Shown in pieces: positions 31,073 to 36,108 of a DNA stretch of 64,000 nt. The translations under genes and the position numbers were made by a program. The notes under the pieces are model-generated. The model did no database searches. It was given only the letters and a program-made list of their open reading frames with translations, and had not been told where the DNA came from. Source of the stretch: Mycolicibacterium gadium (GTDB lineage Bacteria > Actinomycetota > Actinomycetes > Mycobacteriales > Mycobacteriaceae); the NCBI RefSeq assembly GCF_010728925.1, contig NZ_AP022608.1, positions 4,092,001 to 4,156,000 on the forward strand, in the 5' to 3' direction. The stretch's first letter is position 1; each line of letters starts with the position of its first letter.

Positions 31073-31780
31073 ATGGTTACCGCAATTCTCATCAGCCTCG
31101 CGGTCGTGTTCGTGGCCGAACTCGGCGACAAGTCGCAGCTGATCACCATGACCTACGCACTGCGCCATCGATGGTGGGTGGTGTTGTCAGGTGTCGCGAT
31201 CGCCGCCACGCTGGTGCACGGACTGTCCGTGGCGATCGGCCATTTTCTCGGCTTGACACTTCCCGAACGACCGATCGCCTTCGCCGGTGCCATCGCCTTC
31301 CTGTTGTTCGCGATCTGGACATGGCGCGAGGGCCGCGCCGATGACGGCGCCGATGAGGTCCGCGTCGCCGAGCCACGTTTCGTCATCTTCGCGATCGTCT
31401 CCTCGTTCGTCCTCGCCGAGCTCGGCGACAAGACGATGCTTGCCACCGTCACCCTCGCCAGCGATCACAACTGGCTGGGCGTCTGGATCGGGGCCACCGT
31501 CGGAATGGTGCTCGCCGACGGCGTCGCGATCGCTGCGGGCGTCCTGCTGCACAAGCGACTGCCCGAGGGCTTCTTGCACCGGCTCGCCAGCGTGCTGTTT
31601 CTGGTGTTCGGCCTCTGGCTGCTCTTCGACGGCGCGCTCGGGTTGCGCTGGGTCGCGCTCGCGGTCACGGGCTCGGTGGTCGTCCTCGTCGGCACCGTGG
31701 CGCTGATTCGCTTCGCGCGGCGGCCGGATTCGGCGCCGGCGGCCGCATCGACGGCGCCGTCCTCGTGCGATTCGCCCTGA
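31073..31780 (+). CDS. GDT1/UPF0016-family manganese exporter
   Basis: A 235-aa membrane protein with six hydrophobic segments in two repeats. Each repeat carries the family signature E-x-G-D-(K/R)-(T/S): ELGDKS at residues 16-21 and ELGDKT at 116-121. Bacterial members such as MneA export Mn2+; the plant and yeast relatives handle Mn2+ and Ca2+. The Mn riboswitch directly upstream strongly supports Mn2+ efflux. Corresponds to Rv3848. A Ser/Ala-rich C-terminal tail is probably disordered. Confidence 0.9.
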   Translation: MVTAILISLAVVFVAELGDKSQLITMTYALRHRWWVVLSGVAIAATLVHGLSVAIGHFLGLTLPERPIAFAGAIAFLLFAIWTWREGRADDGADEVRVAEPRFVIFAIVSSFVLAELGDKTMLATVTLASDHNWLGVWIGATVGMVLADGVAIAAGVLLHKRLPEGFLHRLASVLFLVFGLWLLFDGALGLRWVALAVTGSVVVLVGTVALIRFARRPDSAPAAASTAPSSCDSP

Positions 31781-32159: not shown

Positions 32160-32558
32160 ATGAGCAAGACGTTCGCCGCCCGTCTAAACAGACTTTTCGA
32201 CACGGTCTACCCGCCCGGTCGCGGTCCGCATACTTCCGCCGAGGTGATCGCCGCACTCAAGTCCGAGGGCGTGACAATGTCCGCTCCGTACCTGTCGCAG
32301 CTGCGCTCTGGCAACCGAACCAACCCCTCCGCAGCGACCATGGCTGCCCTTGCCAACTTCTTCCGTATCAAGCCGGCGTACTTCACCGACGACGAGTACT
32401 ACGAGAAGCTCGACAAGGAGCTCACCTGGCTCGCGAACATGCGGGACGAAGGCGTCCGTCGCATTGCGGCGCGCACTGTCGGCCTGTCTGTTGAGGCCCA
32501 GCAGGACATCGTCCAGAAGGTCGATGAGCTGCGTCGCCAGGAGCATCTGGACGATTAG
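32160..32558 (+). CDS. espR: Nucleoid-associated regulator EspR
   Basis: A 132-aa DNA-binding protein, identical in length to EspR of M. tuberculosis. The N-terminal XRE-type HTH runs from MSKTFAARLNRLFDTVYPPG through SAPYLSQLRSGNRTNPS (recognition helix), followed by FFRIKPAYFTDDEYYEKLD. The C-terminal helices (residues 90-132) form the dimerisation domain. In M. tuberculosis it controls the espACD locus, lipid genes and its own gene. It converges with a membrane protein/ImmA pair across a 37-bp gap. Confidence 0.96.
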   Translation: MSKTFAARLNRLFDTVYPPGRGPHTSAEVIAALKSEGVTMSAPYLSQLRSGNRTNPSAATMAALANFFRIKPAYFTDDEYYEKLDKELTWLANMRDEGVRRIAARTVGLSVEAQQDIVQKVDELRRQEHLDD

Positions 32559-32595: not shown

Positions 32596-33768
32596 TTACG
32601 TAGAAGTCTTCTCTGACCTCACGAGCGTGCGGTACTGCGTGGCAATCTCGAGGATCCATTCGCGGTCCGAGTAGACGCTGGGCTGCCGCAACCATCTCAA
32701 ACCGGGGAACTTCGGGTCCCCGTTCTTCCGTGCACCCTCGCGGCCGGCGTAGATCCACAGCGCGACGGCGTGCGCCTGCTCCTCGGGTGACACCGGCGGC
32801 GGCTCCATCTCGGCGTCCTCCCCATCGATGTCGCCGTCGTCCTCCTCGGCGTCACGATCGGCGAGCGCACCGGTCGGCCCGACCCGCTTTCGCGTGACAT
32901 CCGCAGCGGTCGCCTCCAGAAACAACGCATCCGAGATCAACGACATCCGTTCAGCCACCCGGAACGCGAGCGGACCGCGCGGGCGCACGCCGATTCCGAC
33001 ATCCGGCTGCCGGCGCCCCAGTTCGCCCAGCAGCGGCTGGATCACCCTGAGCTCGCGGCGCGCACCGAACCAGTCCTCGATGCTCGGCAGCAGCGAGCCC
33101 GCGGCGACCACCAGCATCGCGCATCCGAGCAGGGTGGCCGCGGCGCCCACCCCCACGGGTCCGGTCCGGCCCACGGCCCGGAAGAAAAAGAATCCTGACG
33201 CGAAGACGATCAGCACGATGCCGACCGTGAACACGAACAACGCCCTGCCGCGACGGCTGCGGTTCGAGTACCGGAGTCCGGCCCACGACACCAGCGTCAG
33301 CGCCAGCAGTACGTACAGCAGCGGCAACAGCCAGGGCAGCGAGTTGCCGTCCGCGGCCAGGGTCCGCTGCAGATACTCCTCGGGCGCCATCTCTGGCTGC
33401 TGCTCCGCCGAGAAGAACGTCACCAGGCTCACCGCCGCGATGACAACCGCCACGGTGTACTGCGCGATCGCGATCCTTCGGATGGTGGCCGGTTTACGCC
33501 CGGACGCGACGGTGGTGATCATCACGCAGCTGCCCGCCGCGCACATCACCAGCGCAACCTGCGACAGACCCATCGAGATGTTCGGCCACCGCAGGACGGT
33601 GTCGACGAGGAGCGTCAGGGGCTGCCAGTTCAGTGCGGCGACCAGCCCGAGGCTTCCCAGCGCGAAGATCATCGCGGTGCTCACCAGTGATTGCTTGTTG
33701 ACCAGCGCCCATCCGATACGTAAACCGGTGGCCAATCCGAGCAGACCGGCGATCACCCAGATGATCAA
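32596..33768 (-). CDS. MAB_1171c-like 7-TM membrane protein with cytosolic C-terminal domain
   Basis: A 390-aa protein whose first 235 residues form seven predicted TM helices (about 1-23, 27-46, 64-88, 98-119, 143-167, 176-199, 205-230). The rest is a cytosolic region with an acidic stretch around residues 305-325 (DAEEDDGDIDGEDAEMEPP) and a conserved-looking end (WLRQPSVYSDREWILEIATQ). The layout matches the actinobacterial MAB_1171c family, annotated as putative transporters. Its ATG overlaps the stop of the metallopeptidase gene by 4 bp, so the two are translated together. 7 TM plus tail is also the layout of a sensor; no transport motif is visible. Confidence 0.75.
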   Translation of the reverse strand: MIIWVIAGLLGLATGLRIGWALVNKQSLVSTAMIFALGSLGLVAALNWQPLTLLVDTVLRWPNISMGLSQVALVMCAAGSCVMITTVASGRKPATIRRIAIAQYTVAVVIAAVSLVTFFSAEQQPEMAPEEYLQRTLAADGNSLPWLLPLLYVLLALTLVSWAGLRYSNRSRRGRALFVFTVGIVLIVFASGFFFFRAVGRTGPVGVGAAATLLGCAMLVVAAGSLLPSIEDWFGARRELRVIQPLLGELGRRQPDVGIGVRPRGPLAFRVAERMSLISDALFLEATAADVTRKRVGPTGALADRDAEEDDGDIDGEDAEMEPPPVSPEEQAHAVALWIYAGREGARKNGDPKFPGLRWLRQPSVYSDREWILEIATQYRTLVRSEKTST

Positions 33769-34256
33769 CCAAACGCCTCTCCGAGCCGGACCTGAACGAT
33801 GGAAGCGCGATCGGAGGGTAACCGCCCCAACCGATACAGCAGCAGCGCCGCGAAGTCCTCGGCTTCCTGCTCCGCGTCCTCACCATTGGGTCCCATACAT
33901 CCGGTGCGCTGGTTCAGCATGTAGCCGATCAACTCGGAGCTGGCCATCTCGGTGTTCTCCATGGCGGCCTCGACGACCGGCATGCCGTCGTGTCCGAGGA
34001 CCAAGTGGCCGAGCTCATGTGCGAGGGTGCGGTCCCATGCCGGCAGACCCTTTTGAATCAGAAACACGTCGCGATCGGCGTATTGACGCCATTGCCCGCA
34101 TACACCGGGCGGCAGATCGGCTGTCTTCAGCTCGATCGGACGCCCCCTGTCCTTACTGACCGCATCGACTAGCCGGGTGAGCGACACCTCCCCGTGGCGC
34201 GGAGCGAGATCCAGAACCGCACTCACTGCGCGGGTGACGTTGCGGCTGGCAGGCAT
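33765..34256 (-). CDS. ImmA/IrrE-family metallopeptidase
   Basis: A 163-aa protein with the zinc motif HELGHLVLGHD (residues 80-90) and a downstream Glu-containing helix EQEAEDFAALLL that supplies the third ligand in this family. ImmA cleaves the phage-element repressor ImmR and IrrE/PprI cleaves DdrO, both XRE-type regulators. The start ATG 34256 has AAGGGGGAA upstream. It is coupled to the 7-TM gene and lies 1.2 kb from espR, itself an XRE-type regulator. Its target is unknown. Confidence 0.85.
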   Translation of the reverse strand: MPASRNVTRAVSAVLDLAPRHGEVSLTRLVDAVSKDRGRPIELKTADLPPGVCGQWRQYADRDVFLIQKGLPAWDRTLAHELGHLVLGHDGMPVVEAAMENTEMASSELIGYMLNQRTGCMGPNGEDAEQEAEDFAALLLYRLGRLPSDRASIVQVRLGEAFG

Positions 34257-34323
34257 AGATTCCCCCTTTCGACCAATCCACTATGCGCTGTTCGGGCCGT
34301 CGAAGCAGCGGTTCCCCAACAGT

Positions 34324-35298
34324 TCAGTCCATAAATCTTGCGGCGGCTCCGGCGCGTACCGCGTGCCCCGCCTTTGCCTGTCGGTAACCAACGAGGCCAC
34401 CGACACCGGTGAGAAGCACCATGCCGGCGAGGCCAGGTGCCGCCACGAGGGCAACCTGTGAAATCCCTGCGTTGCGCAGGTATTCGGTGTACCCGGCGCG
34501 GTAAGACGCGGGCGGGGCCGCGACGTTGCTGGCCGTCTCGGCAGGCGGCGCCTGCCGCCCGGCGGGCGTTTCGGCCGCGGGTACGCGCGGCGACGCCGGG
34601 ACCGGCTCGGTGGGTAGCCCGCTCGGAGCTGCGCCACCAGGGAGTGCCACCGGGGGCGCCACGACGATCGGTAGGGCGAACGGCGCGACCGGAAGTTGCG
34701 GCGCGGCGATGCCGATGCCGGGTTCGGCGTCGACCACGCCCGGCTGCGACGGCGTGTGCTCGGGCAGCAGATGTGGCGGCAGTTGCATCGGCGGCGCATG
34801 CGGCCGACCCGCCGGCGGACGGATAGGTGGGCCCACACCTCCACCGTTACCCGGGGGCGACGGGTCGGGCCGCGGACCGGGTGGCCATTGCCAGCAGTCG
34901 TCTGGCTCTTCCTTGCCCGGCGGTTCTTCCCGCGGTGGCTCTTTGGGCGGAGTTTCGGCGCGACCGCCGTCCTCGGTCTGCGGCCGCTGATGGGGAACGC
35001 GTCCGCTTCCGAATTTGCGTTCCCGCGGCTTACGACCGGCTGGCTCGTCCCGTCGAGATCCGGTGCCCGGCGACGCTTGGTCACGGCCGCCCGGCCGGGC
35101 CGCCGACGGCGTTCCCTCGTTTCGCCGGGATTCGGTCCTGCCGTCATCTGCGTCGTTGGCCCCGACCGAGCCGGGCGCCGGGGTCGCATTCGCAGGAATA
35201 TTGCCGGCACCGCCGACCAACAGCCCGTAAGCGACGAGGAAGCCGGCCGCGGCGATGCCCACACGCGAACCCACTTCTGCACCACCCATCACACGCAT
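34324..35298 (-). CDS. Exported Pro-rich protein with C-terminal TM helix
   Basis: A 324-aa low-complexity protein. An N-terminal hydrophobic segment (VGIAAAGFLVAYGLLVGG) acts as signal or anchor. The middle is rich in Pro, Arg, Glu and Gly (KEPPREEPPGKEEPDD, then Pro/Ala-rich to residue 260). A C-terminal TM helix (ALVAAPGLAGMVLLTGVGGL) is followed by a short basic tail. ATG 35298 is a guess: ATG 35289 and 35427 are alternatives and none has a good ribosome binding site. I recognise no family. It lies 67 bp upstream of the ImmA/7-TM pair on the same strand and may belong with it. Confidence 0.65.
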   Translation of the reverse strand: MRVMGGAEVGSRVGIAAAGFLVAYGLLVGGAGNIPANATPAPGSVGANDADDGRTESRRNEGTPSAARPGGRDQASPGTGSRRDEPAGRKPRERKFGSGRVPHQRPQTEDGGRAETPPKEPPREEPPGKEEPDDCWQWPPGPRPDPSPPGNGGGVGPPIRPPAGRPHAPPMQLPPHLLPEHTPSQPGVVDAEPGIGIAAPQLPVAPFALPIVVAPPVALPGGAAPSGLPTEPVPASPRVPAAETPAGRQAPPAETASNVAAPPASYRAGYTEYLRNAGISQVALVAAPGLAGMVLLTGVGGLVGYRQAKAGHAVRAGAAARFMD

Positions 35299-35454: not shown

Positions 35455-36108
35455 ATGAGCCTGTTCAAGCGCAAAACCCGCGCCACCCGAAAGGCCGAGG
35501 CCCGCGCCATCAAGGCGAAGGCGAAACTCGAGGCCAGACTGGCGGCCAAGAACGAAGCTCGCCGCATCAAGGCCGAGCACCGGACGGAAACGCGCGCCCT
35601 GAAGGCTCAACTCAGGGCCCAACGCGAAACCGACCGCGCCGCGCTCAAGGTCGCAGACCTGCAGCTCAAGGCCGCGCGTGAAGGTAAGTTGTTCTCGCCC
35701 ACCAGGATTCGCCGCTTCCTCACGATCACGCGGCTGCTCGCACCGGTGGCGGTGCCACTGGTGTACCGGGCCTCTATCGCAGCGCGTGGTTACGCCGACG
35801 AGCGCCGCGCTGCCCGCCTCGGTGTTCCGCTGAGCCAGCTCGGTCAGTTCTCCGGCCACGGCGGGGAACTCTCGGCGCGGATCGCCGGCGCCGAGCAGTC
35901 GCTGCGGATGGTCGCCGAGAAGAAGCCCAAGGACGCCGAAACGAAACAGTTCGTCGCGGCGATCACCGATCGCCTCGGTGATCTGTCGGCCGCCGTCGCC
36001 GCGGCGGAGAACATGCCACTCGCGCAGCGTCGTTCGGCCCATGCCGCCATCGCCAAGCAACTCGACGGCATCGACGCCGACTTGATGGCCCGGCTCGGCC
36101 TGGTCTGA
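35455..36108 (+). CDS. Conserved hypothetical protein with basic coiled coil (Rv3850-like)
   Basis: A 217-aa protein, matching Rv3850 in length and order. The first 80 residues are a highly basic helix with repeated KAKAKLEARLAAKNEARR-type sequence, likely a coiled coil. A short hydrophobic stretch (LLAPVAVPLVYRASIAARGY) follows, then an amphipathic helical region to the end. The function is unknown. ATG 35455 follows GGGAG. It marks the right edge of the segment inserted next to espR relative to M. tuberculosis. Confidence 0.8.
   Translation: MSLFKRKTRATRKAEARAIKAKAKLEARLAAKNEARRIKAEHRTETRALKAQLRAQRETDRAALKVADLQLKAAREGKLFSPTRIRRFLTITRLLAPVAVPLVYRASIAARGYADERRAARLGVPLSQLGQFSGHGGELSARIAGAEQSLRMVAEKKPKDAETKQFVAAITDRLGDLSAAVAAAENMPLAQRRSAHAAIAKQLDGIDADLMARLGLV

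What the first reader, a model, noticed from the sequence alone, without database searches (positions are those of the whole stretch)
32596..35298. Insertion next to espR: ImmA/IrrE protease coupled to a 7-TM protein with cytosolic tail, plus a Pro-rich exported protein
Relative to the M. tuberculosis order espR-Rv3850, three minus-strand genes are inserted. The metallopeptidase (HELGH) and the 7-TM protein share an ATGA stop/start, so they are made together. ImmA/IrrE proteases classically cleave XRE-type regulators, and EspR is an XRE-type regulator 1.2 kb away, convergent across one hairpin. A 7-TM sensor that controls a cytosolic protease acting on EspR, or on a paralog, would be a new way to relay a membrane signal to a nucleoid regulator. 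The families are known; the pairing and the EspR link are inference.
Basis: partly seen in the sequence, partly recalled or inferred. Interest (0 to 1): 0.75.

Follow-up and report, generated by a model that had tools for sequence, protein, structure and literature searches.

The report
EspR's lost protease-and-sensor partner genes
Beside the gene for EspR, a much-studied DNA-binding regulator of mycobacteria, many species keep a protease gene and a membrane-protein gene that accompany EspR-like regulators across the actinobacteria, and in species without the pair one short stretch of EspR has lost its conservation, which suggests that the protease acts there.

Summary
The genes are real. EspR (32160-32558 +) converges on a 7-TM protein (33768-32596) preceded by an IrrE-fold HELGH protease (34256-33765). 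Corrections: the protease/7-TM overlap is TTGA, not ATGA; the hairpin is no better than shuffles; the block looks lost elsewhere rather than inserted here; the 7-TM protein is below the MAB_1171c family cut-off.

In 118 Mycobacterium genomes, 63 of 64 protease orthologues lie within 4 kb of EspR. Among 197 Actinomycetes genomes, 17 of 18 EspR-like genes outside the family have an HExxH protease in the locus. Of 19 places of the MAB_1171c family, 17 have the protease and 15 an EspR-family XRE gene.

New: EspR residues 100-110 (RRIAARTVGLS) are identical in 92 of 98 EspRs with the module and in 0 of 44 without. On the tree the segment changed 5 times with the module and 55 times without, about 25-fold after scaling; the DNA-binding part differs 1.4-fold. 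This nominates the protease contact or cut site. Against: 42 of the 44 are one clade, and the Nocardia/Rhodococcus-type clade is not relaxed. Cleavage and sensing are inference.

The parts
32160..32558 (+). EspR, XRE-type DNA-binding regulator (132 aa), the presumed substrate
   Evidence: 230 bits to solved EspR 3r1f; 294 bits to the EspR profile
32457..32489 (+). codons for EspR residues 100-110 (RRIAARTVGLS), conserved in mycobacterial EspRs that have the protease module; candidate contact or cut site (A104-R105 at 32469-32474)
   Evidence: DdrO analogy from passages of PMC8072749
32596..33768 (-). 7-TM protein with cytosolic tail (390 aa, TTG start), distant relative of the MAB_1171c / DUF6545 family; presumed sensor
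   Evidence: NF042915 33.8 bits, below cut-off 100; PF20182 17.9 bits, below 24.4; topology; model
33765..33768 (-). TTGA stop/start overlap of protease and 7-TM gene
   Evidence: 77 of 80 loci TTGA, 3 GTGA
33765..34256 (-). ImmA/IrrE-type zinc metallopeptidase (163 aa)
34005..34019 (-). HELGH zinc-binding motif (residues 80-84)
   Evidence: H80, E81 and H84 invariant in 42 of 42 aligned orthologues
34324..35289 (-). Pro-rich protein with an N-terminal hydrophobic segment and a conserved C-terminal TM (start uncertain); mycobacterial add-on upstream of the pair
   Evidence: translations; C-terminus in 76 of 80 near loci and 4 of 55 family loci
31073..31780 (+). GDT1-family transporter gene, left syntenic flank
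   Evidence: PF01169 143.5 bits; present in 29 of 44 module-less loci as fetched
35455..36108 (+). DUF6474 gene, right syntenic flank; follows espR where the block is missing
   Evidence: PF20079 264 bits; same strand beside EspR in 44 of 44 module-less loci

Best explanation
The locus is a membrane-linked proteolytic switch. A 7-TM protein in the membrane (inferred sensor) controls a co-translated cytosolic IrrE-type zinc protease. When active, the protease cuts, or at least binds, the C-terminal dimerisation domain of EspR around residues 96-110, most likely near A104-R105. Since the EspR C-terminus is needed for dimerisation, a cut there would inactivate EspR and change its regulon. The three-gene set (EspR-family XRE, IrrE-type protease, 7-TM protein) recurs across actinobacteria. 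Mycobacterial lineages that lost the pair, among which M. tuberculosis EspR falls by sequence, kept EspR as an orphan that no longer has to preserve the contact site. Shown here: gene identities, linkage, fold, absence in part of the genus, site-specific relaxation. Inferred: that EspR is bound and cleaved, the bond, the sensor role, the signal.
Against: No cleavage is shown. Midpoint-rooted parsimony gives 3 losses, but 42 of 44 module-less tips are one clade, the other two are single tips (L265, L304), and on a protein tree the well-supported branches force only one change, so another change in that clade could explain the relaxation. Residues 81-95 (5.8-fold) and 96-99 (18-fold) are also relaxed, so the effect is a segment, not one bond. 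In the Nocardia/Rhodococcus-type clade 17 of 17 module-less EspRs keep RAFDLS, and over all unlinked rows scoring at least 55 bits R105 is kept in 19 of 25. The 7-TM fold search gave only weak 7-TM matches (best E 0.035). XRE-ImmA adjacency is common in bacteria, so low-scoring linked cases say little about EspR.
Confidence: 0.66

Rival explanations
1. The protease recognises EspR but does not cut it: EspR and the protease form a regulatory complex (partner-switch or chaperone-like), with EspR 96-110 as docking surface and the 7-TM protein tethering the complex to the membrane.
For: Relaxation spans residues 81-110 rather than one bond. Some plasmid cassettes have EspR-like proteins that end soon after the A-x-R position (L086, L094-L096), so little would be left to cut off.
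Against: HExxH is present in the protease hits of the class-level loci and H80, E81, H84 are invariant in 42 of 42, which suggests that catalysis matters. Known relatives cut their XRE partners (DdrO and ImmR: PMC8072749 passages; CapH: recalled).
Confidence: 0.2
2. Neighbourhood regulation only: EspR represses or activates the pair, and the protease's real target is another XRE protein or paralogue.
For: EspR regulates its own promoter and many loci (PMC3315491, abstract). Three EspR paralogues away from the module, in genomes that have it, keep the A/S-R pair (L321-L323).
Against: Would not explain why EspR's C-terminal segment, rather than its DNA-binding part, is relaxed where the protease is absent.
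Confidence: 0.12
3. EspR of the module-less clade changed for its own reasons (new dimer or nucleoid-protein role), and loss of the protease block in the same lineage is coincidence.
For: 42 of 44 module-less mycobacterial tips are one clade and supported branches force only one change of state. The Nocardia/Rhodococcus-type module-less EspRs are not relaxed in RAFDLS.
Against: The two isolated module-less tips also changed: L265 RRIASRSVGLS, L304 RRIATLAAELS, though L304 is a long branch and S at 104 also occurs in one linked EspR (L308). Diverged EspRs with the module hardly change.
Confidence: 0.17
4. Toxin-antitoxin pair (the protease homologues are annotated 'toxin' in two Streptomyces records), with the 7-TM protein as effector.
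For: Names 'toxin-antitoxin system, toxin component' in L089 and 'toxin' in L103.
Against: EspR without the protease is common (117 of 118 genus genomes have EspR, 63 the protease orthologue); IrrE-type fold; annotation is by name only.
Confidence: 0.04

Closest known systems
IrrE (PprI) - DdrO of Deinococcus
   Same: IrrE fold protease acting on an XRE repressor with C-terminal dimerisation domain; DdrO is cut between Leu106 and Arg107 (PMC8072749, passages)
   Different: No 7-TM partner is mentioned in the passages seen; IrrE has an extra GAF-like domain and is thought to answer zinc and oxidative stress
CapP - CapH (CBASS regulators; recalled) and ImmA - ImmR (mobile elements)
   Same: XRE plus IrrE-like protease pair; PADLOC models capP and capH score the window's protease and EspR
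   Different: Chromosomal locus kept in synteny here; a membrane protein beside the pair; convergent order
BlaR1 - BlaI / MecR1 - MecI (recalled)
   Same: Works like: membrane sensor that switches a zinc protease against a DNA-binding regulator
   Different: Sensor and protease are one polypeptide of another family; not a member
MAB_1171c family (NF042915) / DUF6545 (PF20182)
   Same: Membrane protein with C-terminal domain, beside IrrE-type protease at 17 of 19 places and an EspR-family XRE at 15 of 19; MAB_1171c knockout had about half the biofilm mass (PMC8707978, passages)
   Different: The window's protein is below both cut-offs (33.8 of 100 bits; 17.9 of 24.4)
EspR of M. tuberculosis
   Same: EspR orthologue, nearest in sequence to EspRs of module-less Mycobacterium genomes

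Membership tests
ImmA/IrrE (M78) metallopeptidases | HExxH zinc motif | tested here: met
   HELGH, H80/E81/H84 invariant in 42 of 42
ImmA/IrrE (M78) metallopeptidases | IrrE-type fold | tested here: met
ImmA/IrrE (M78) metallopeptidases | Pfam PF06114 gathering score | tested here: inconclusive
   17.4 bits against 22 for the window protein; of six cassette homologues scanned, L091 (24.1) and L088 (23.0) are over it, three below, one without match
ImmA/IrrE (M78) metallopeptidases | Cleaves a cognate XRE regulator | not testable with these tools
   needs biochemistry
EspR | Full-length sequence match to solved EspR and same flanking genes as other mycobacterial EspRs | tested here: met
   230 bits over 1-131; DUF6474 beside EspR in 44 of 44 module-less loci
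MAB_1171c family (NF042915) | Score over the curated cut-off of 100 bits | tested here: not met
   33.8 bits; described as a distant relative only
DUF6545 (PF20182) C-terminal domain | Score over 24.4 bits | tested here: not met
   17.9 bits; of three plasmid cassette members scanned, two reach 67 and 131 bits, one has no match
CapH-CapP / DdrO-IrrE type pair | XRE gene and IrrE-type protease gene close together, conserved | tested here: met
   here the 7-TM gene lies between them
CapH-CapP / DdrO-IrrE type pair | Response to DNA damage, or link to CBASS or mobile genes | not tested
   no expression data; CBASS genes were not searched for
BlaR1-type sensor protease | Sensor and protease in one membrane protein | tested here: not met
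   two separate ORFs

The most novel reading that the evidence does not exclude
EspR, known as a nucleoid-associated protein and ESX-1 regulator of the tubercle bacillus, descends from the substrate of a 7-TM-controlled protease switch spread across actinobacteria. One large group of mycobacteria, to which the tubercle bacillus belongs by its EspR sequence, lost the switch, which fixed EspR in a stable, unswitched state and let its contact site drift. In species with the module the switch still turns the EspR regulon off on a membrane signal, possibly a small molecule, since sister cassettes lie beside P450, methyltransferase or FAD-enzyme genes.
Probability: 0.45. Interest if true: 0.9.

Novelty: new variant of a known kind. 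Interest (0 to 1): 0.78.

Why it matters
EspR has been studied as a nucleoid protein and virulence regulator, and I saw no report of a proteolytic switch for it (searches named in Tried and rejected). If true, many mycobacteria control it by proteolysis from the membrane, and the tubercle bacillus carries the orphaned half of that system. It would give a natural experiment (with and without the switch), a named 11-residue target, and a function for a large family of actinobacterial membrane proteins of unknown role.

Tried and rejected
Rejected: the ATGA overlap; the hairpin as a special element; 'insertion' polarity; filing the 7-TM protein in the MAB_1171c family. The Pro-rich protein was not pursued beyond its distribution. 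Led nowhere: 7-TM tblastn against plasmids found nothing; sequence search of solved structures with the protease profile gave three unrelated weak hits; Foldseek for the 7-TM model gave 7-TM receptors at E 0.035 or worse, not used. A first rate test used 111 of 141 gathered sequences because an exact-word filter dropped 30; it was replaced (142 of 144; L042 and L043 dropped because EspR is cut there), with the same result. The Nocardia/Rhodococcus-type clade was checked for the same relaxation and does not show it. Literature, open-access library only, listings by title and abstract start: EspR with IrrE, 0 papers; DUF6545, 0; MAB_1171c, 1; EspR, proteoly and Rv3849, 5, none on EspR proteolysis by title; (27 returned no paper; the others showed 12 to 20 of larger sets) listed none on an EspR protease.

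Full report
WHAT IS THERE. The window lies in a 5.96-Mb genome whose protease is 98% identical to that of Mycolicibacterium tusciae and 99% to that of an unclassified Mycobacteriaceae MAG. On the + strand are a GDT1-family transporter gene (31073-31780) and EspR (32160-32558). On the - strand, reading towards EspR, are a Pro-rich protein (35289-34324, start uncertain), a 163-aa protease (34256-33765) and a 390-aa 7-TM protein (33768-32596). A DUF6474 gene follows on the + strand (35455-36108). The protease stop and 7-TM start overlap as TTGA (77 of 80 related loci; GTGA in 3), not ATGA. EspR and the 7-TM gene converge with 37 bases between their stop codons in the window, median 50 in 80 loci. 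The inverted repeat between them folds no better than shuffles.

LINKAGE. From the protease: the 80 nearest loci of 157 found all hold protease, 7-TM and convergent EspR (EspR is cut by the contig end in L042 and L043). In 151 genomes of the family the profile gave 91 places in 72 genomes. I fetched the 90 other than the window's, and 83 hold an EspR-profile ORF, 55 of 55 for those scoring 52 bits or more and 28 of 35 below. The weaker ones may be ordinary XRE-ImmA pairs, which are common. In 118 genomes of the genus, 63 carry a protease orthologue (64 places of at least 285 bits), 117 carry EspR, and 63 of 64 places lie within 4 kb of EspR; the exception is in a fragmented genome. From EspR: in 197 Actinomycetes genomes 30 have a hit at E 1e-6. 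All 18 hits outside the family were fetched, and 17 have an HExxH protease in the locus, 12 also a 7-TM profile hit; a control of 20 EspR-only family loci had 0. From the 7-TM family NF042915: 19 places in 14 of 60 genomes, with protease at 17 and an EspR-family XRE at 15, two of them weak (24 and 37 bits); 3 of the 19 are Mycobacterium, the window included. On named plasmids such sets lie in Rhodococcus, Tomitella, Corynebacterium, Tsukamurella, Dietzia, Nocardia, Mycobacterium and Streptomyces (with 62 and 99), convergent or co-directional. EspR-like genes without the protease also occur there (4 loci: checked).

POLARITY. A tree of 144 EspR-family proteins from 157 loci given (118 linked, 26 not; few columns, many weak forks) needs 11 changes of linkage against 23.9 for shuffled labels, with unlinked rows among linked ones. 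In 44 Mycobacterium loci without the block, DUF6474 lies beside EspR on the same strand in 44 of 44, and none has a protease or 7-TM profile hit, against 85 of 85 linked loci. In 20 EspR-only loci (4 of this genus) a tblastn search found no protease or 7-TM remnant at E 1, only one weak Pro-rich match (E 0.46, L209). On the midpoint-rooted mycobacterial EspR tree 3 losses and no gain are inferred: one clade of 42 and two single tips, L265 and L304; on a protein tree the supported branches force only one change. So 'insertion' is better read as an old block lost elsewhere.

THE SITE. EspR residues 100-110 are RRIAARTVGLS in 92 of 98 EspRs with the module and in 0 of 44 without, which show 32 versions (100 and 44 given, 2 dropped). 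Leaving the motif codons out of the tree, the motif changed 5 times on 196 with-module branches and 55 times on 82 without. Scaled by third-position changes this is 0.29 against 7.77 per 100. The DNA-binding part (4-80) is 4.86 against 6.92, and 111-130 is 8.03 against 12.99. Of 117 windows of 11 residues, 100-110 ranks first by both tree methods. Residues 96-99 (0.17 against 3.11) and 81-95 (1.50 against 8.76) are relaxed too. Controls: linked EspRs with low overall scores (267-281 bits) keep the motif, exactly in L305-L307, L309 and L310, with one exchange in L308 (A104S) and L311 (V107I); unlinked ones with scores of 278-286 bits (L265, L266, L267) do not. Across ten diverse linked EspR-family proteins A103 and R105 are among ten invariant positions. 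Against: in the Nocardia/Rhodococcus-type clade 17 of 17 module-less EspRs keep RAFDLS; only position 104 differs somewhat (S or A in 31 of 31 linked, 6 of 17 unlinked).

MECHANISM. IrrE cuts DdrO between Leu106 and Arg107 in the dimerisation domain and so inactivates it (PMC8072749, passages). EspR dimerises through its C-terminal domain, and removing ten C-terminal residues prevents dimerisation and espACD activation (PMC3315491, abstract and passages). By analogy the protease would cut EspR near A104-R105 and switch it off; no alignment of DdrO and EspR C-termini was obtained (only the HTH parts matched). A 7-TM gene overlapping the protease gene is most simply the membrane input. Both steps are inference. 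No ligand is known; sister cassettes next to P450, methyltransferase or FAD-enzyme genes suggest a small molecule.

VERDICT. It is a new variant of a known kind (XRE plus IrrE-type protease), with a membrane partner and with a well-known regulator as the likely substrate.

Noticed in passing
L091 6140-8587, L100 1663-9269, L101 6613-8016, L102 6741-8153, L103 6745-7923, L089 7576-9300: Plasmid cassettes (HTH gene, protease, MAB_1171c/DUF6545) are followed by P450, methyltransferase or FAD-dependent enzyme genes; L100 has two tandem cassettes, each with a P450.
   Followed up: partly
L086 6056-6625, L087 1495-2094, L088 5986-6549, L095 6062-6643, L096 6053-6655: In Rhodococcus, Tomitella and Corynebacterium plasmid forms a small PAP2-like membrane protein sits between the 7-TM gene and the EspR-like gene, often with a second XRE gene beyond.
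   Followed up: no
L086 6629-6988, L094 6666-7010, L095 6640-6987, L096 6659-7015: EspR-like proteins of these plasmids end within about 20 residues after the A-x-R position.
   Followed up: no
L321, L322, L323: EspR paralogues away from the module in genomes that carry the module keep the A/S-R pair (VAARAIGLS, IASRAVGLS), as if also exposed to the protease.
   Followed up: partly
L324 (G349): EspR beside the module appears altered after about residue 92, and the match ends early; described only.
   Followed up: no
L092, L097, L098, L104: Orphan EspR-like genes on Mycolicibacterium, Nocardia and Rhodococcus plasmids without protease or 7-TM hit in the fetched stretch.
   Followed up: partly
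genus code g30, for example G053, G113, G148; L146-L155, L157-L159, L167, L168: Genomes of one unnamed genus of the family carry up to four protease places each, in these loci convergent with EspR-like genes.
   Followed up: no
G000:C1:4933020-4933382 (L001): The only PF06114 match at E 0.001 in the window's own genome, in a 494-aa open frame; the window's protease is not found by that model.
   Followed up: no
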